The notes under the pieces: model-generated
Databases searched by the model: none
Told to the model about the DNA's origin: nothing
What the model saw: the letters and a program-made list of their open reading frames with translations, nothing else
NCBI GenBank assembly: GCA_017650925.1
Contig: JAGCDY010000040.1
Location: forward strand, 1-36,042
Reading direction: 5' to 3'
DNA length: 36,042 bases
From: a bacterium
GTDB lineage: Bacteria > Auribacterota > UBA3054
Translations under genes and position numbers: made by a program
In this document: positions 1,226-22,975 of the stretch, piece by piece
Position numbering within the stretch: position 1 is the first letter of the stretch
Layout: every line of letters begins with the position of its first letter

Positions 1226-2422
1226 TTAACTTAAAAGCCAGTCGCTAAGATCAACAATCTTAATTCCCTCATACTGATATTCCGGGTGACCAGTGTTTGC
1301 TATCAAGATTTTTGGATAAGCGTCCCTGATCTGCAATAAGGAATCAATTTCCCGTTTAAAAGTCTCCTCCACTGTAATATTGTCCGAAACTTGTATGTAT
1401 ATTTTTTCATCGCCCTTCATAGCTACAAAATCTATTTCCTTCCGGTAAAGCTTGCCAACATAGATTTCGTATCCTCGCCGAAGAAGTTCCATGGCAACAA
1501 TATTTTCATAGCATCTGCCATAATCTATGTTTCGCCTTCCTAAAACAGCACCTCTGATTCCCAGATCGGCAAGGTAATACTTTTCAGACGTCTCCAGATA
1601 TTTCTTGCCTTTTACGTCAAACCTTTTCGTGCCGTAAAATAAGAAGGCCGCGCATAAACATTTGATGTATTTTCCTATCGTAACATGATTAGCAGGCATT
1701 TTATTGATGTTCAACACGTTACTTATGTTATTTGGTGATGTGATATTGGATATGTTGTCCATCATAAACTCAGCGAGATGTTCCAACGAATCAACATCAG
1801 TGATTTGATATTTCTTTATCAAGTCTCTTCTGATTATCGTGGAATATACATCCTTCAAATATGCTTTGCGATCAGTTTCGTTAGTATATTCGTATGATCC
1901 CGCCAATCCGCCTTTAAGAACGTAATCATCCAGCATATTTTTCTTGCTTTTGGCATCGGAATAATACAATGAAAATTCCTTGAAACTGAATGGATAAACA
2001 GGTATTTCCAAGAATCTACCGGTGAACAATGTCGTAAGGTCAGAACTAAGCAGGAAGGCGTTCGAGCCGGTTATGTAAATATCGTATTTTTTGCTGTTGT
2101 GGAGACTATTTACTGCCAACTCAAAATTTTCACACAGTTGAACTTCGTCAATAAAGACCATATTTATTTTATCTTCGACGTAATTCTTTTCAACATAATC
2201 ATAAAGAACTTTATAATTTTTCAGTTCTTCATACTCCAGGTTGAAAAAATCCACAAGAATAACGTTAGCCATTTTTATGTTATTCTCAATGTAGCTCACA
2301 AAGGCATGCATCAGTTCGGACTTACCGCATCTGCGGATGCCGGTTATAATTTTGATATCGGGAGTCCCTATAAGCCCTTTGAGCCTATCCAGATATTGTG
2401 TCCTTTCAATATATTTCTTCAC
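1226..2422 (-). CDS. AAA family ATPase with DUF4143 C-terminal region
   Basis: The 398-residue product carries a Walker A motif, GIRRCGKS, at residues 28-35 and a Walker B, VFIDEVQL, at about 89-96, followed by an ITGSNAFLLSS sensor-like stretch (118-128). This is the usual plan of the AAA_14 plus DUF4143 family. The C-terminal part has an EIDFVAMKG...IYIQVS pattern like the PD-(D/E)xK-type fold often seen at the end of these proteins. Substrate and role of the family are largely unknown; it is common as a single-gene accessory locus. The start is GTG (2422) with GAGG five bases upstream. The gene is clearly richer in A/T and in ATA/AAA codons than its neighbours, has its own promoter and terminator, and is flanked by unrelated operons, which suggests recent acquisition (inference). 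Confidence 0.85.
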   Translation of the reverse strand: MKKYIERTQYLDRLKGLIGTPDIKIITGIRRCGKSELMHAFVSYIENNIKMANVILVDFFNLEYEELKNYKVLYDYVEKNYVEDKINMVFIDEVQLCENFELAVNSLHNSKKYDIYITGSNAFLLSSDLTTLFTGRFLEIPVYPFSFKEFSLYYSDAKSKKNMLDDYVLKGGLAGSYEYTNETDRKAYLKDVYSTIIRRDLIKKYQITDVDSLEHLAEFMMDNISNITSPNNISNVLNINKMPANHVTIGKYIKCLCAAFLFYGTKRFDVKGKKYLETSEKYYLADLGIRGAVLGRRNIDYGRCYENIVAMELLRRGYEIYVGKLYRKEIDFVAMKGDEKIYIQVSDNITVEETFKREIDSLLQIRDAYPKILIANTGHPEYQYEGIKIVDLSDWLLS

Positions 2423-2433
2423 AAAAGCCTCGC

Positions 2434-2516
2434 TTTCGAAAATTGTTATTTTTTCGTTTTTCGAAAGTATTATACGATTTCACTTTCAAAATTTCAATAT
2501 TTTTCGAGTTTCGAAA
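2434..2516. repeat. Four 25-bp-phased TTTCGAAA palindromes, likely operator array
   Basis: TTTCGAAA occurs at 2434-2441, 2459-2466 and 2509-2516, and a one-base variant TTTCAAAA at 2484-2491. The four copies start exactly 25 bp apart. One covers the predicted transcription start, one lies in the promoter spacer beside the -35, one is upstream of the -35 and one is in the leader. Such phasing over a promoter suggests binding of a dimeric regulator. No regulator gene is adjacent, so the factor is unknown. Confidence 0.75.
2469..2497 (-). promoter_or_regulatory. Strong promoter of the AAA ATPase gene
   Basis: On the minus strand TTGAAA (2497-2492), a 17-base spacer and a perfect TATAAT (2474-2469) predict transcription starting near 2462, 40 bases before the GTG start. 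This is the best consensus match in the window for a protein gene. It is interleaved with the TTTCGAAA palindromes at 2434-2516. Confidence 0.8.
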
Positions 2517-2563
2517 GTGTAGAAGAGGCTAAGAAGCGAGCAAAAGACAAAGTAATATAACGA

Positions 2564-15868: not shown

Positions 15869-18800
15869 TTATTCTTCCGTGACCAGGTTGATGGTATTGG
15901 GAGCGACGTACTTCATATTGAACTTCCTGTTCTTGATGGAGAGCGAGATCTGCATCGTAACGTTTTTGACCGTTCCTTTGTAGGTCAAGGATTTGCCGTT
16001 GTTGGAGAGCTTAACTTTCGTTCCGCTCAAAATATGGAATTCCATGCAGTCATCGCTCAGGCAGATCCACTTGCCTATCAGCTCATTCGAGATATCCTCG
16101 TTTAGCGTAGAAGTGAAGTTCAGTTTACGTTTAGGTTTGGTAACTTCACAAGGAGCAGCCACTTGCCCATCAAAACGAGCCAAGGTAACACTAGGCAAGG
16201 TGGAAGTGTATTTGAACATACGCTTCTTAGCGTTATATTGGATCTTCAGACTTTTCTCTTTCACGGGGAGTGTATTGATCATTTTCGGCTCAACTATCAT
16301 CGTGTTGTCCTCGGAAGCGTACAGAGCAACCTCCAGAGAATCGCAGATATCCTGGAAGTCATCCGGAGCAAGGAAGCCGCTCAGGTTGAGTTTGCACTGC
16401 GATGTGCCTGCCCTCTTGACCCATTTGGTGTCCAAGTGCCTGAAGAACGGCTTGGTGATACCGTCGGACATTTCCCAAACGTTGATGAAGTCCCAGTCAC
16501 TGAAGGTCTCCCTCTTCAGCAGTGCCTCGGCTGTCACGGCCTTGCCGTAACCGTTATCCCCGGCCTGCGACTTGTCAAAGAAGGACGAGATCACCGTGCT
16601 TTCTGTCGCCGTGCCGAATACGCCGCCCTGGCTTCCGGAGGAAGTCGTGCTTCCGGCGGCATATCCGTAGGTCAGCGTCGTATATATCGCCGTTCCTACG
16701 AAACCGCCTGCGTTGTTACAAGCGGAAACATTCGCCACAGTGAATGCGTTGTTTATGCTGCTGTCCGTAGCGCAGCCTATCAACCCGGCGACGTTCTCGC
16801 CGCCCTCGGCATAGCCTTCGGCGCAGACGATCTCTGCAGTAATATTATTGACCGAGCCAACAAGAAGCGCCGTGTTGGTCTCGGCGTTGACACGGCCAGC
16901 GACAGACACGTTCTTTATCGTGCAGCCTTCGCCGCAGCCAATCAGCAAGCCGACATTTTGAGACGCCGTAACTTTCGCCTCGGAAATGGTAAGGTTCTTT
17001 ATCTCGCTTCCTTTGGCGTATCCGAACAAGCCGGCGCCTTCCATATCGGGATCGTTGACATAGAGGCCTTTGATAGAGAAGCTGCGGCCGTCGAAATAGC
17101 CCTGGAACGGCTCCGCTTCGCTCCCTATCGGCTCGAAGCCCAGGCCGTCCAGCCAATCTTCGCACAGAGACAGATCAATATCAGCGGACAGGACGCTGTA
17201 GGCCCCGACCGTTGTCTTTGTGTTCCTGGAGAGCCAGAGCAGGTTGGCGACATTTGCGATCGTATAAGGAGCTTCTTCGGTTCCCTTGCCGGACGGTTTT
17301 TCATCACCGTACACGAACACCGCCTTGATTTCGGTGTCGCCCTCTATAACATAAGTGCTGCCTTCTATTGCTTCTCCGTTTACTAACAACTGTCTCAAGA
17401 CATATCCGTTATCCGGAGTTGTCTCAATTATAATCACATCATTATAGTGATAAGAATCTTTTGCCGGCTCAATCGCCACACTGCCGCCAAAGGTTGAAAC
17501 GCAAGTCATGCTGTACTCTTCCAGCTCAAAGACAGGCGTCAGGGTCAGGTTGTCCGTTACGGTTATCGTTCCGGTAGCGTTAGTCAGGACTTGCTCGTAG
17601 CCCTGGATCTCAACGAAACTATAGCCTTTTTCAAGTTCGACGCTATACCCCACCTCATCATTGTAATGATACGAGCTCTTTTGCGGATCCAAAACTATGC
17701 TGCCGCCTTCAGCAACGTCGCAAGTCACCACATACTCCAGATTGGTGAAGTTCGCCGTCAATTCGTAATGCTGCGTCATCTTTATGACCAGAGGATTGTC
17801 GGTGGATTCCAGCGTTCCGGAATAATTTGCGAAAGCGTATCCAACTTCCGGGTTAGCGGAAATGGTCACCTCTTCTTCGTTGTGATAGGTCTCTTTCTCT
17901 GGTTCGACGGTAACGGTACCGCCTTCGCTCGTGGTCAGCGTCAAGGTGTAAGCGTCGAAGTAGAACGCGGCAGCTATCTCGTGATGCTGATCCATCGTCA
18001 CTTCGAGCACGAGGTTCGTGGATTCGGCTGTGCCTGTGTAACCTTCAAAGGCATAACCTTCGTCGGGTACGGCTGTCAGCGTCACCACTTCGTTGCGGTG
18101 GTAAGTTTCCTTCTCGGGCTCGACGGTAACAGTGCCGCCTTCGCTCGTGGTCAGCGTCAAGGTGTAAGCGTCGAAGTAGAACGCGGCAGCTATCTCGTGA
18201 TGCTGATCCATCGTCACTTCGAGCACGAGGTTCGTGGATTCGGCTGTGCCGGTGTAGCCGTAGAAAGCATAGCCTTCGTCAGGAACGGCCGTCAAGGTGA
18301 CTTTCTCGTTGAGATGATAGGTCTCTTTGTCGGGAACAACCGTTACAGATCCGCCAGATCCCGTAGTCAAGTTCAACTTATAAGCGTCAAAGTAGAACGT
18401 TGCAGTAATATCTAAATGATTGGTTACCGTCACTTCAACCGTATCATCAGTTGAAGTAACGCTTCCGCTGAAGCCCTCAAAGGCATAATTCGTCTCGGGA
18501 ATCGCCGTTAGAGTCAGAACATCTCCATAGTAGTAAACTTCCTTTTCCGGACTTATCGTAACGCTTCCTTCCCCTACCGTTGTCATGGAACACTTGTATT
18601 CGCATTTTCTAAACTTCGCCCTGAATGTAGTGGAATGCGTCACAGTATAAGTGCTGACAAGATTCGTCGTCTCAAAATCATCACAATATACCTTCTCCAA
18701 CTCGTAGCCTGGGTCAGGCGTGGCCGTTATGGTGACAACATCGCCGTAAGTATAATTCCCTTTGACAGGAGCAATTGCTATCGTTCCTCCTTCGGAACTC

Positions 18801-21800
18801 GATGTTGTTAGATCAAAGCCCGTTGTTGGAATGGTCCTGACAGAAACATTGTCGAACTGAATATTCCCTTCGTAAGTAACGCACATACAGAAGAGATTGC
18901 AACCGCTGCCCACATATTCTTCATTTATATAGGCATCCGCAGGATGCTCCGTGTTCCCGTTTATGGCGAATTCCACGAGCTTGCCTTCCTTATAGTCGAT
19001 AACATAAGAAACATGCATCCATTCTTCTGTGTATTCCGTCGTCGAATAAATGCAGTCGTTGGCATGATCGTGCCCATAAACGATTGGAACGCCGTCCACA
19101 AAATCGATATCCAGCGTAATGTCCGCAGCGGACATGAATTTGCTGTTCTGCTTTAAGTAGATGACTTCCCTGCCGATCAGATCTTCCCTGTCAAAGATGT
19201 CAGGCGGGAAGAAGAAGTCGCAGTCGAATCTTACGAGCTTGTTGGCCGGGACCTGGAGGTCATGGAAATAGCCGCCCCAGCCGCCGCCAGTCTCAACCAT
19301 AAGCACTTGAGTATCATTGGTGCTTAAAACATAGGCAACGTTGCCGTTCTGGTTGTCGTTGCCCCATTCATCCTGACCAGTAATATCACCCAAAGTAAAG
19401 AATGGTTCCTCAAAGTCGGCATAATAGTAAACATCCCCTTTGACAAAAGAAACGATGCAGGTCGCGCATCCTGCTTCTCCGGCGTCAACTTTAATTCTGG
19501 AACGATAGAAATTGTCCTTTAGGCCGCTTCTGTCAACGCTAATGCTCAAATTGGCGGAAGCATCCACCGTTCCCGTCGGATTCGTGATCGTCAAAGCGTC
19601 GCTCAAGTCTATGACTTCCGCAGTGTAATCAAAACTGTCAGTACCGCCGTTCTTCATTTGAATGTCTATCGAATCGTTCGTGCCGATAGCCTTGTAGGAG
19701 GGAAGCATCAACTTAGAGTCGCCTTCACAGGCAACTCTCTTAATCATAAGATTGTCAACAGCAATCCTACTGCCGTTCGCCTCACCGCTCCAAGCGGCGA
19801 TTCCCCAGGAATTGAAGAAGTTGCAGTCTGGGTTTTTAAGAGTGAAATTTGTAAAGTTCGTGACCGTGCCGTTCCAACCGAAGGAAAGAAGCATATTAGC
19901 CCGGAAATCTATCGTGTACTCAACTTGGACCCACGTGTCATACGGAGCTGTTGGGAAATCACCGATACTTTGCGCACTTCTTGCCAAAATATTGTACAAC
20001 TCGAATCCATCATCGGCAGGATAAATATGAGCTTCAAATTTCTCGTTTGTATCACTGTCTTTCTGAAGCACGTAAAAAAATTCGGCGTCGCTGTCGCTTG
20101 GCCAATACATATCAAAAGAGACTTTAACGACAAGATTCTCGTACCAAGGCTTGGGCAGATACTTGCTGCAGCCGTTATTGCCGCCCGCTCTGTATGCGAA
20201 CATGCATTTCTCATCGCAATTGTAAGCATTCGTAATAACTACGTTGCCGACATCGACCGTCCAGCCTCTCTGGCCGACGATATTGCCGTCTTCCATAGTG
20301 TTGAAGTCTTCGGCAAAAATGACATCGCCTTTGGAGCACACGACGGAAACTATTTGCGTTCCGGCAGCGCCTCCGTCAACAGTCATACTGCCGCGATAGA
20401 AACCTTCCTCCAAACCGTTTTTGGGCTTCAGTGTTAAAGTGGCGGACTCATTGAAAGATCCGCTGGAAGGAGTCACTTCAAGCCAAGGACTGTCAGTCGA
20501 TACGGAGTAATTGATTACAGAAGAAGACGAACTGGCGTTGAAAATATCGAATTCAATGCTGGCAGCGTCCAAAGGAATCACCGCCTCTTCATCGCAGCAA
20601 AGCAAAGGATCCGAGGAACGAGCAAATGATGAGACCCCTATAAAATCATAATAAGAGCCCGTTGCTCCGTTAAGCGTACCGAGTCGTGTAGATAGGCGCA
20701 ATCTGGACGGCTGTTCACATGTACCATTGGGACTGATCTCGCAATCTTTCACTTCACCATTGCAAATTATTTGAACGATCTTTTTCGCAAACGGATCCCA
20801 AATGATTGAGATCTCATTGGGGGTCGAAGCATCCGTGTAAAGGTTTGTAAACTTCACGCCAGAGGGACCGCTTTCCAAAGTTCCGGCGCTGCGATTACCA
20901 TTCAAATAAAAGTAACGGCTGCCATTTTTGTCATAAAGGGCGAAAAGGTCTTGATCGCTGGCAATAACGACTCTGGTGCTTATTCTGACCAAACCGACCG
21001 CGGGATTCTCAATATCCAAGTTAAAACTAGGAGTAAAAACCATGACGTATTCATCGCTCCCTCCTGAGGATCGTGAGAGAAGCATAGCTTTGCCATCAAT
21101 ACCGGGAGCATCATCAACCACTGTGGTGTTGCCCTCATAGGTGCTGTAGAAATTCCAGCCATCCACTGTTCCGACCACCTCTGTTCCAACCGCATAATCC
21201 TCGAAGTCTTCATAGAACAAAACGCCTGGATCCACACGCTTGGTAAATTCCGCCCTGATAGTCGTAGAGTGCGTCACAGTATAAGAGCTGACAAGATTCG
21301 TCGTCTCAAAGTCATCGCAATATGCCCTCTTCAGCTCGTAGCCGCTGCCAGGCGTTGCTGTAATGGTTATAACGTCGCCGTAGGCGTATTGCTCCTGTGC
21401 GGGAGAAACAGAAAGTGTTCCTCCTTCCGAAGTCACTGCGTTTATCGTAATATCATCAAGACCTTCATTCGGGAGATAACTAGCCCAGAATCGACTGCAA
21501 GCAACGTCTTTGCCGGTTTGCTGATCTCTTGCCAGCATAGAACCGCCGAAAAGCAGCTTGCCATACTCGGTAACATCACAGGAAGCGTAATAAGAGGCTA
21601 CTGGCAGTTTTGTGTCGTGAACAAGCGAAGTCCTTCTATTCATATCGACGATCTGAACAGTATCCAAGGGAATAAGAGCGTTGCTTTCATCCTTTGTGCG
21701 CCCGCCCATGGCGTATATAACATCCTTGTAACAGGCAACAGAAACATCGCGAACCGGTATCTGGAGTTCCAAATCACTATCAACCAGTTTGAAAACATTG

Positions 21801-22975
21801 GTTGCTGTCTCCATTATTCGAATCTTGGAAGATACCCTGCTATCTCCAACAATGTAGATCTTTGATCCCCATTTGGAAATACCAAAATTAATTAAGTTAT
21901 CGGAATAAATATTTTCGTAACTTGTCCACTGATCAGACTTGGTGTTGTAAGTTTGCATGCAACAGCTGCCGTTTCCCCAAAAACTGCCTCCAATGACATA
22001 GGCGATTCCATCTATGCAGACAGCTCCGCCGCCATACTGACATTTATAACCGCTTGAGAAATTACTGGCTGCGCTAGATCCGCTCCAAGCGCCATAAGGG
22101 CTTTCGGGATCCGTTATCGGTTTCCTATTGGGATTGTAAATACTGAATGTGCCGTCCCACGAAGGATAACCGCCATGCACAAAGAAAGAAGGTGTTCCTG
22201 ATTCGTCAAAATCGTACAGAAAAGCCTGGCCGTTGCCGCTGCGGACACCGTCAACTGAAACTGCTTCCTGCACTACCCATTCATCATGGATCCAACGAGC
22301 GCCACATTTATCTGATTGCATATCTATGTAAGTCGGAGGGCCGCTGCCATCCCACTTAGAAGAATCCCAAGAATCTTTTGAAACGTCATATATGTTAAAC
22401 TGAACGCTGCGATTGAATGAAAAGCCTTCTTCGAAAGTGTTGCTCGGCCAAAAATAGCCGTAATCCGTCAAATCTCCGTTCTTCGTTCCATCCTTGACAA
22501 ATTTGCAGTAGTTATCCATGCCGGGAAAAGTCAGTTTTGTTTCTGCGCTTCTCAGAGCGAAATTGCACATCTGCCCAGTGGCGATCATATATTTTCCGTC
22601 AAGGTAGGCTGCTGCGCCGTAGAAGGTCGGCCAGTAGCCCGGAACTTCCTTGAATGGGTCGTCGGTAGCGACCAGCTGAATATTGGTAGAAACAAGCTCG
22701 GCTGTCCCCCAAGTGTTTCCATAAAACGCTTCGACCGTTCTGTTTGTCGGGCAAGGAGGTTCCATATCCGCATAGTACTCAACCATATCTTCTCTTGCGG
22801 TTGAACGTCTGGCATCATAATGTTGATATGGCCACCAGGATGGATTCTGCGCTTTCTCTGTCCAAACCTCATTCAAAGCACTCAAATCTTCAGGCCAGAG
22901 CGTCTCTGCAAGAGTGAAAAAATTCATTACCATTATGCATGCAATGACTACGGTTAAAAAGCTAAATCTTTTCAT
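15869..22975 (-). CDS. Giant secreted multidomain protein (kelch-like, LamG-like, BACON-like, InlB repeats, GLUG)
   Basis: The 2368-residue protein has a signal peptide (1-23, cleavage likely after TLA). Order, with rough positions: kelch-like propeller (90-500; YVIGGSFWG, IYAMGGR, LLFGGSML), one InlB_B-type repeat (507-580), LamG-like domain (587-790), BACON-like domain (804-876), LamG-like (888-1080), BACON-like (1096-1176), LamG-like (1186-1382), seven tandem InlB_B-type repeats (1384-1892), GLUG-type repeats (1896-2130) and a beta-rich C-terminal region (2186-2368). Each LamG-like unit opens with a (Y/A)xxFE or EDF motif. There is no sortase, PEP-CTERM or obvious type IX sorting tail and no enzymatic motif. 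Carbohydrate or surface binding is the likely role. The ribosome site is weak (ACGGGA). It is monocistronic, with its own promoter and terminator. Confidence 0.85.
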   Translation of the reverse strand: MKRFSFLTVVIACIMVMNFFTLAETLWPEDLSALNEVWTEKAQNPSWWPYQHYDARRSTAREDMVEYYADMEPPCPTNRTVEAFYGNTWGTAELVSTNIQLVATDDPFKEVPGYWPTFYGAAAYLDGKYMIATGQMCNFALRSAETKLTFPGMDNYCKFVKDGTKNGDLTDYGYFWPSNTFEEGFSFNRSVQFNIYDVSKDSWDSSKWDGSGPPTYIDMQSDKCGARWIHDEWVVQEAVSVDGVRSGNGQAFLYDFDESGTPSFFVHGGYPSWDGTFSIYNPNRKPITDPESPYGAWSGSSAASNFSSGYKCQYGGGAVCIDGIAYVIGGSFWGNGSCCMQTYNTKSDQWTSYENIYSDNLINFGISKWGSKIYIVGDSRVSSKIRIMETATNVFKLVDSDLELQIPVRDVSVACYKDVIYAMGGRTKDESNALIPLDTVQIVDMNRRTSLVHDTKLPVASYYASCDVTEYGKLLFGGSMLARDQQTGKDVACSRFWASYLPNEGLDDITINAVTSEGGTLSVSPAQEQYAYGDVITITATPGSGYELKRAYCDDFETTNLVSSYTVTHSTTIRAEFTKRVDPGVLFYEDFEDYAVGTEVVGTVDGWNFYSTYEGNTTVVDDAPGIDGKAMLLSRSSGGSDEYVMVFTPSFNLDIENPAVGLVRISTRVVIASDQDLFALYDKNGSRYFYLNGNRSAGTLESGPSGVKFTNLYTDASTPNEISIIWDPFAKKIVQIICNGEVKDCEISPNGTCEQPSRLRLSTRLGTLNGATGSYYDFIGVSSFARSSDPLLCCDEEAVIPLDAASIEFDIFNASSSSSVINYSVSTDSPWLEVTPSSGSFNESATLTLKPKNGLEEGFYRGSMTVDGGAAGTQIVSVVCSKGDVIFAEDFNTMEDGNIVGQRGWTVDVGNVVITNAYNCDEKCMFAYRAGGNNGCSKYLPKPWYENLVVKVSFDMYWPSDSDAEFFYVLQKDSDTNEKFEAHIYPADDGFELYNILARSAQSIGDFPTAPYDTWVQVEYTIDFRANMLLSFGWNGTVTNFTNFTLKNPDCNFFNSWGIAAWSGEANGSRIAVDNLMIKRVACEGDSKLMLPSYKAIGTNDSIDIQMKNGGTDSFDYTAEVIDLSDALTITNPTGTVDASANLSISVDRSGLKDNFYRSRIKVDAGEAGCATCIVSFVKGDVYYYADFEEPFFTLGDITGQDEWGNDNQNGNVAYVLSTNDTQVLMVETGGGWGGYFHDLQVPANKLVRFDCDFFFPPDIFDREDLIGREVIYLKQNSKFMSAADITLDIDFVDGVPIVYGHDHANDCIYSTTEYTEEWMHVSYVIDYKEGKLVEFAINGNTEHPADAYINEEYVGSGCNLFCMCVTYEGNIQFDNVSVRTIPTTGFDLTTSSSEGGTIAIAPVKGNYTYGDVVTITATPDPGYELEKVYCDDFETTNLVSTYTVTHSTTFRAKFRKCEYKCSMTTVGEGSVTISPEKEVYYYGDVLTLTAIPETNYAFEGFSGSVTSTDDTVEVTVTNHLDITATFYFDAYKLNLTTGSGGSVTVVPDKETYHLNEKVTLTAVPDEGYAFYGYTGTAESTNLVLEVTMDQHHEIAAAFYFDAYTLTLTTSEGGTVTVEPEKETYHRNEVVTLTAVPDEGYAFEGYTGTAESTNLVLEVTMDQHHEIAAAFYFDAYTLTLTTSEGGTVTVEPEKETYHNEEEVTISANPEVGYAFANYSGTLESTDNPLVIKMTQHYELTANFTNLEYVVTCDVAEGGSIVLDPQKSSYHYNDEVGYSVELEKGYSFVEIQGYEQVLTNATGTITVTDNLTLTPVFELEEYSMTCVSTFGGSVAIEPAKDSYHYNDVIIIETTPDNGYVLRQLLVNGEAIEGSTYVIEGDTEIKAVFVYGDEKPSGKGTEEAPYTIANVANLLWLSRNTKTTVGAYSVLSADIDLSLCEDWLDGLGFEPIGSEAEPFQGYFDGRSFSIKGLYVNDPDMEGAGLFGYAKGSEIKNLTISEAKVTASQNVGLLIGCGEGCTIKNVSVAGRVNAETNTALLVGSVNNITAEIVCAEGYAEGGENVAGLIGCATDSSINNAFTVANVSACNNAGGFVGTAIYTTLTYGYAAGSTTSSGSQGGVFGTATESTVISSFFDKSQAGDNGYGKAVTAEALLKRETFSDWDFINVWEMSDGITKPFFRHLDTKWVKRAGTSQCKLNLSGFLAPDDFQDICDSLEVALYASEDNTMIVEPKMINTLPVKEKSLKIQYNAKKRMFKYTSTLPSVTLARFDGQVAAPCEVTKPKRKLNFTSTLNEDISNELIGKWICLSDDCMEFHILSGTKVKLSNNGKSLTYKGTVKNVTMQISLSIKNRKFNMKYVAPNTINLVTEE
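17300..18830 (-). repeat. Seven tandem InlB_B-type repeats inside the giant gene
   Basis: Seven units of about 72 codons each show the pattern Y-x-L-T-x5-GG-[ST]-[VI]-x4-P-x-K-x2-Y-x5-V-x-[LI]-x-A-x-P-x2-GY-x-F, then an aromatic-rich hinge and an A-x-F end. An eighth, isolated copy lies earlier in the protein (about 21240-21460). The middle units are nearly identical, the outer ones divergent. Confidence 0.85.
17919..18250 (-). repeat. 116-bp perfect direct repeat (216-bp period)
   Basis: Bases 17919-18034 and 18135-18250 are identical over 116 bp and offset by 216 bp (72 codons), one InlB-type unit. The identity ends sharply on both sides, so this is a recent duplication or gene conversion between neighbouring units. 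Confidence 0.95.

What the first reader, a model, noticed from the sequence alone, without database searches (positions are those of the whole stretch)
2434..2516. Four TTTCGAAA palindromes in exact 25-bp phase across a strong promoter
Seen directly: TTTCGAAA starts at 2434, 2459 and 2509, and TTTCAAAA at 2484, so all four steps are exactly 25 bp. Within them lies a minus-strand promoter with TTGAAA, a 17-base spacer and TATAAT. One copy covers the likely start site and one sits in the spacer. An 8-bp palindrome at constant spacing is unlikely by chance even in AT-rich DNA. It suggests a regulator binding cooperatively as an array, controlling a lone DUF4143-type ATPase gene that looks foreign in composition. 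The family has no well-known regulation.
Basis: partly seen in the sequence, partly recalled or inferred. Interest (0 to 1): 0.72.

Follow-up and report, generated by a model that had tools for sequence, protein, structure and literature searches.

The report
Orphan ATPase reads its own operator
The four phased palindromes are two copies of a binding site that a very widespread, uncharacterised ATPase (catalogued as a candidate phage-defence protein) appears to recognise with its own DNA-reading helix, and the letters of the site change in step with four amino acids of that helix in relatives across several bacterial phyla.

Summary
TTTCGAAA lies at 2434, 2459 and 2509 and TTTCAAAA at 2484, over a near-consensus minus-strand promoter. 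No local shuffle (20,000) gave even three copies in 25-bp phase.

The unit, however, is not an 8-bp palindrome. It is a 37-bp inverted repeat with its dyad on a base, present twice: O1 (2482-2518, covering -35) and O2 (2432-2468, over the likely start site). Relatives of the gene (47-67% identity, several phyla) carry the same element at the same promoter position. Arm letters differ between genes, but left and right arms stay complementary; neighbouring genes' promoters lack it.

Four half-site bases covary with four residues of the ATPase's own predicted winged helix: 245-b3, 247-b4, 246-b5 and 231-b6 are the top four of all residue x base pairs (z 9.9-14.3; next 5.7), with sensible chemistry (Arg/Lys/His-G, Asp-C, Asn-A). 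The rule, noted beforehand, predicted 132 of 138 bases in 19 new members (best of 20,000 permutations: 112).

So the ATPase (AAA_14/DUF4143; PADLOC candidate PDC-S01) very probably binds, and probably represses, its own promoter. Repression, the role of ATP and any link to phage defence are inferred. 3' copies of the site in 9 of 52 members are unexplained.

The parts
1226..2422 (-). AAA_14 / DUF4143 ATPase gene (398 aa, GTG start), P0001; PADLOC candidate defence family PDC-S01
   Evidence: Pfam AAA_14 1e-30 and DUF4143 3e-19; PADLOC PDC-S01 2e-144; GC about 0.36 against about 0.55 in the flank
2482..2518 (-). Operator O1, 37-bp odd-dyad inverted repeat (dyad 2500), ACTTTCGAAACTcgaaaaatattgaAATTTTGAAAGT, contains the -35
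   Evidence: same geometry relative to the -10 in relatives
2432..2468 (-). Operator O2, 37-bp inverted repeat (dyad 2450), ACTTTCGAAAAAcgaaaaaataacaATTTTCGAAAGC, covers the likely transcription start
   Evidence: TATAATA-CTTTC junction identical in L012 and L014
2509..2516 (.). half-site 1, TTTCGAAA (left arm of O1)
2484..2491 (.). half-site 2, TTTCAAAA on + strand (right arm of O1)
2459..2466 (.). half-site 3, TTTCGAAA (left arm of O2)
2434..2441 (.). half-site 4, TTTCGAAA (right arm of O2)
2492..2497 (-). -35 TTGAAA
2469..2474 (-). -10 TATAAT
1616..1795 (-). codons 210-269: predicted winged helix-turn-helix (helices 210-223, 230-239, 246-259; strands 263-265, 267-269)
   Evidence: AlphaFold2 model, local pLDDT about 60-77
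1682..1690 (-). codons 245-247 (N-H-V), start of the recognition helix; covary with half-site bases b3, b5, b4
1730..1732 (-). codon 231 (N), start of helix 2; covaries with half-site base b6

Best explanation
The element is the private operator of the ATPase gene it precedes. The ATPase's winged helix (residues 210-269) binds as a symmetric pair to two half-sites 25 bp apart on either side of an A-rich centre. O1 contains the -35 box and O2 overlaps the start site, so the bound protein most likely blocks RNA polymerase and keeps its own level low; two operators about 50 bp apart allow a second dimer or cooperation. Residues 245, 247, 246 and 231 each read one base, and operator and helix evolve together, so the gene travels between phyla as a self-regulating unit. 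Shown by sequence: the conserved geometry, the promoter overlap and the residue-base code. Inferred: physical binding, repression rather than activation, the role of ATP and what releases the protein.
For: (1) In 64 non-redundant upstream regions of the subfamily (window included) inverted repeats are enriched only at odd spacings (25: z 20.9; 27: 20.6; 29: 21.5; even spacings z under 4); promoters of neighbouring genes are flat. (2) Fixed place: the -10 hexamer starts mostly 23-27 bp after the dyad, so the -35 falls in the operator. (3) Of all protein columns x half-site positions the top four APC-corrected MI pairs are 246-b5 (z 14.3), 231-b6 (11.6), 247-b4 (10.9), 245-b3 (9.9), next 5.7. 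Counts per half-site: K247->C 88/88, D246->G 46/46, H246->C 85/86, N245->T 96/96, R231->C 85/86. (4) Rule noted, tested on new genomes: 132/138 correct in 19 members; best of 20,000 permutations 112. (5) On a tree built without residues 224-256, residue and base each change 7-8 times for 246, 247 and 231; no independent pair goes the other way. (6) AlphaFold2 places 246-259 as the third helix of a three-helix unit with a two-strand wing, with 245-247 at its start. (7) The same residue 247 tracks a half-site base in a separate subfamily: K/R with G in 8 of 8 genes, N with T in 12 of 13 (read post hoc).
Against: No binding or expression data. About a fifth of subfamily members lacked a clear odd-dyad repeat and were left out of the coevolution set (52 used); a few have even-dyad or degenerate arms, e.g. 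L301. T245 breaks the b3 rule in 3 of 19 new members (6 half-sites). Held-out members are relatives of the training set (maximum identity 0.59-0.88), and only 3 (7 for residue 245) of the independent pairs rest on strongly supported branches, too few for a sign test to reach 0.05. 3' copies in 9 of 52 members are not needed for simple autorepression.
Confidence: 0.85

Rival explanations
1. A host-encoded regulator binds the palindromes and controls the foreign gene.
For: Operators overlap a promoter.
Against: The element moves with the gene across phyla; different ATPase genes in one genome have different arms (G052: L129, L130, L135); arm letters track residues of the ATPase itself.
Confidence: 0.03
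2. The repeat acts as an RNA hairpin (attenuator or translational control) in the 5' UTR.
For: O2 would be largely transcribed and its arms can pair (sequence).
Against: O1-type operators, the only copy in most members, contain the -35 and lie upstream of the start site, so are not transcribed (e.g. L156); one-to-one covariation with recognition-helix residues points to double-stranded DNA contacts; arms are A+T-rich with a loop of about 15 nt.
Confidence: 0.03
3. The sites are recognised by the ATPase but their main role is not transcription: they bracket the gene as ends of a mobile or protected unit, or as an anchoring site, with promoter overlap secondary.
For: A copy of the gene's own operator lies at the stop codon (dyad +6 to +37) in 9 of 52 members against 0.08 expected; strong horizontal spread; conserved synteny ends exactly at the neighbouring gene, with different DNA beyond it in four congeners.
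Against: 43 of 52 members, the window included, have no 3' copy; the upstream copy keeps a tight promoter register; no target-site duplication or transposase seen.
Confidence: 0.09
4. The ATPase activates rather than represses its promoter from these operators.
For: Good -10 boxes combine with variable -35 boxes in the family; binding upstream of -10 could recruit polymerase.
Against: O1 covers the -35 itself and O2 the start site, the usual layout of repressors.
Confidence: 0.1

Closest known systems
PDC-S01 (PADLOC putative defence candidate; ATPase fused to a PD-(D/E)XK-like domain)
   Same: The window protein matches its model over residues 1-397 at E 2e-144. PMC12988326 calls it the fourth most common defence system across all prokaryotes, with validation pending for most such candidates.
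   Different: The passages on it in the two survey papers read say nothing of DNA recognition or an operator; in this subfamily the third PD-(D/E)XK residue is not Lys (Q344-x-S/A/C346).
Archaeal Walker-type ATPase PABY2304 (2QEN) and Orc1/Cdc6 initiators (2QBY)
   Same: Best fold matches (E 2e-8, 5e-8); AAA+ domain followed by a winged helix; Orc1/Cdc6 bind short repeats with the winged helix (general knowledge).
   Different: 13-16% identity and TM-scores of only 0.30-0.50; Orc1/Cdc6 sites are origins, here the site is the gene's own promoter.
RptR-type repressors of defence islands (PMC12255303)
   Same: Repressor of a defence locus that binds repeats of a short palindrome in the promoter (abstract).
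   Different: RptR is a small separate regulator with a conserved TAGCTA site; here the ATPase itself carries the DNA-reading domain and the site varies gene by gene.
Autorepressors with operator/recognition-helix coevolution (e.g. LacI and TetR families; general knowledge)
   Same: Helix residues and operator bases covary.
   Different: Those are dedicated regulators; this is an AAA+/PD-(D/E)XK-like ATPase of unknown function.

Membership tests
AAA_14 / DUF4143 ATPases (PF13173, PF13635) | profile matches over curated cut-offs | tested here: met
   106.6 bits (cut-off 27) and 70 bits (28.1)
AAA_14 / DUF4143 ATPases (PF13173, PF13635) | intact Walker A and B | tested here: met
   G33 K34 S35 and D92 E93 invariant in 75 members, G28 in 74
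PDC-S01 | PADLOC model match over the full length | tested here: met
   E 2.2e-144, residues 1-397
PDC-S01 | anti-phage activity | not testable with these tools
   described as a candidate lacking validation (PMC12988326)
active PD-(D/E)XK nuclease | D, (D/E) and K catalytic residues | tested here: inconclusive
   E306, D331 and Q344 invariant; 346 is S, A or C, not K; a migrated Lys cannot be excluded
autoregulatory operator (works like) | site overlaps the gene's own promoter at fixed register | tested here: met
autoregulatory operator (works like) | site letters depend on the DNA-reading residues of the encoded protein | tested here: met
   held-out 132/138
autoregulatory operator (works like) | protein binding changes transcription | not testable with these tools
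   needs EMSA and reporter assays
Orc1/Cdc6 initiators | sequence family membership | tested here: not met
   no PDB chain matched by sequence profile and no Orc/Cdc6 Pfam match; fold similarity only

The most novel reading that the evidence does not exclude
The ATPases are self-recognising modules. Each binds its own private site at the 5' end and, in some lineages, also at the stop codon, so the protein brackets its own gene; the rapidly changing site and helix give each copy in a genome a separate identity (up to 38 DUF4143 matches per genome), perhaps for movement, copy exclusion or self/non-self sensing rather than only autorepression.
Probability: 0.12. Interest if true: 0.92.

Novelty: new variant of a known kind. 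Interest (0 to 1): 0.77.

Why it matters
The family is counted among the commonest 'defence systems' of prokaryotes, yet I found no known mechanism, target or ligand for it. This gives it a first predicted ligand: a specific DNA sequence that can be predicted from four residues and tested with a gel shift. It also shows that the gene carries its own promoter control, which helps explain how it crosses phyla, and offers a set of DNA-binding proteins with a simple, readable recognition code.

Tried and rejected
Chance phasing of A+T-rich DNA: rejected by shuffles and by conservation. Host regulator: rejected by the code and by different operators in one genome. RNA hairpin: rejected by untranscribed O1 operators. 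Dyad parity in other subfamilies: mostly even (66 genes even-better, 18 odd-better), so the odd 25-bp geometry is a subfamily trait. An APC-corrected MI scan in one such subfamily (31 genes, 19 effective) gave no clear pair (top z 3.6), though residue 247 tracked a base by eye. Two viral-contig scans gave one relative. No empty site: four congeners share the DUF4340 neighbour up to window 2563 but have different DNA after it. No PDB sequence relative. Open-access literature: DUF4143 is named in one paper and PDC-S01 in three.

Full report
Observation. The coordinates are right: TTTCGAAA at 2434, 2459 and 2509, TTTCAAAA at 2484, around a minus-strand promoter TTGAAA-17-TATAAT that matches 11 of 12 consensus positions. 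Four copies make three 25-bp steps. Shuffling the local sequence 20,000 times gave two copies of TTTCNAAA in phase 11 times and three or more never. In the held genome the paired pattern occurs here and at one other, directly oriented place. The promoter drives a 398-aa AAA_14/DUF4143 ATPase in a stretch of about 36% G+C against about 55% next to it.

Conservation. A first scan found nine relatives of 54-67% identity in records named as Clostridia, Pyramidobacter, Fenollaria, Erysipelotrichaceae, Bacteroidales and others, and a related element was visible upstream of them. Further searches of whole genomes and of plasmid and phage records gave 177 distinct genes. In 64 non-redundant members of the window's subfamily (47-67% identity, window included) inverted repeats are strongly enriched at odd arm spacings only (25, 27 and 29 bp: z 20.6-21.5; even spacings z under 4), while promoters of other genes in the same loci are flat. 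An odd spacing means that the dyad falls on a base pair. Other subfamilies also have strong upstream repeats but mostly with even spacing.

Anatomy. Centred on the dyad, the element is 37 bp: two half-sites A-Y-T-b3-b4-b5-b6-A-A-A (0-based numbering, complementary arms) around an A-rich centre. In most members there is one copy, whose dyad lies 23-27 bp before the -10, so that it contains the -35. In the window this is O1 (dyad 2500). Sixteen of 72 scored members, the window included, have a second operator-like site upstream; in 8 of the 16 the dyads are 49-51 bp apart. The window's O2 (dyad 2450) lies over the likely start. The exact 25-bp step between O1 and O2 is thus partly particular to the window; the 25-bp step within each operator is the conserved part.

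The code. Arm letters differ between genes (CTTTCGA, TTTCCCA, TTCCGAA, TTTACCA, TTTCGCA), while left and right arms stay complementary. A pairwise screen controlled for overall protein distance put residues 247, 231, 201 and 246 on top (r 0.51 to 0.32; permutation maximum 0.298), and the tables showed a one-to-one pattern. In 71 members (effective number 50) the four highest APC-corrected mutual-information pairs are 246-b5, 231-b6, 247-b4 and 245-b3 (z 14.3, 11.6, 10.9, 9.9), the next is 5.7. Per half-site: K247 with C 88/88; V or I247 with T or A 42/42; H246 with C 85/86; D246 with G 46/46; N245 with T 96/96; D245 with C 12/12; R231 with C 85/86; N or S231 with A or G 51/52. On the opposite strand these are Lys-G, His-G, Asp-C, Asn-A and Arg-G, the usual contacts of recognition helices (general knowledge).

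Tests of the code. The rule was written in the notebook before members from new genomes were read. In 19 new members with a clear repeat it predicted 32/32 (247), 34/34 (246), 36/36 (231) and 30/36 (245) bases, 132/138 in all, against a mean of 77.9 and a maximum of 112 in 20,000 permutations. The new members are related to the training set (0.59-0.88 maximum identity), so this is not fully independent. On a tree built without residues 224-256, residue 246 (D or not) changes state 8 times and its base 8 times, 247 7 and 7, 231 7 and 7; all independent pairs in which the base differs go the predicted way, but only 3 pairs (7 for 245) rest on strongly supported branches. Fitch mapping puts 8, 6, 5 and 8 co-changes on the same branches for 246, 247, 231 and 245. 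In a second subfamily with AGTTTT arms, residue 247 again goes with one base (K/R with G in 8 of 8 genes, N with T in 12 of 13), a post hoc reading; the formal scan there was not significant.

Structure. The AlphaFold2 model (mean pLDDT 79, weaker around the winged helix) shows helices 210-223, 230-239 and 246-259 and strands 263-265 and 267-269, a winged helix with 245-247 at the start of the third helix and 231 at the start of the second. The nearest solved folds are an archaeal Walker-type ATPase (2QEN) and Orc1/Cdc6 on origin DNA (2QBY), at low TM-scores. Walker residues are intact; the PD-(D/E)XK-like domain keeps E306, D331 and Q344 but has S, A or C at 346.

What is known. PADLOC names the family PDC-S01. 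A 2026 survey ranks it fourth among all prokaryotic defence systems and says that validation is pending for most such candidates (PMC12988326); it is the most frequent individual locus in a rumen survey (PMC13356809). DUF4143 itself is named in one held paper. I found no account of DNA binding or regulation, within the limits of an open-access library.

Mechanism. Best supported is autoregulation: a symmetric pair of winged helices on each operator, blocking -35 and start site. Direct recognition is strongly supported by sequence; repression follows from position; ATP dependence, the release signal and any role in defence are open.

Unexplained. In 9 of 52 members a copy of the gene's own operator sits at the stop codon (dyad +6, +22/23 or +36/37), against 0.08 expected. 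Some are direct copies with the same centre (L191, L198), which fits remnants of tandem duplication; others are not. The window has none. This is the main reason to keep the non-regulatory readings alive.

Noticed in passing
L159, L165, L182, L191, L198, L155, L168, L222, L135 (3' ends): A copy of the gene's own operator lies at or just after the stop codon in 9 of 52 members (0.08 expected); dyad positions cluster at +6, +23 and +37.
   Followed up: partly
L017, L018, L019: The same gene with identical upstream DNA occurs in bins labelled Clostridia, Methanobrevibacter and proteobacterium, which suggests misbinning or a very recent transfer.
   Followed up: no
window 2563; L305-L308: Synteny with four congeners ends exactly at the 3' end of the DUF4340 gene, and they show different DNA after it: a variable junction.
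   Followed up: partly
G013, G014: 38 and 36 DUF4143 matches in single genomes of about 2.2-2.5 Mb.
   Followed up: no
L118, L139, L143, L146: Other subfamilies show two longer composite repeats around the promoter, e.g. CTAATCGAAA..GTCA..TGAC..TTTCGATTAG in L118.
   Followed up: no
L292, L298, L300, L303: New recognition residues extend the code: N247 with A at b4, N246 with A or T at b5.
   Followed up: partly
window 15869-22975: 2368-aa protein with InlB B-repeat-like, BACON and Kelch matches.
   Followed up: no
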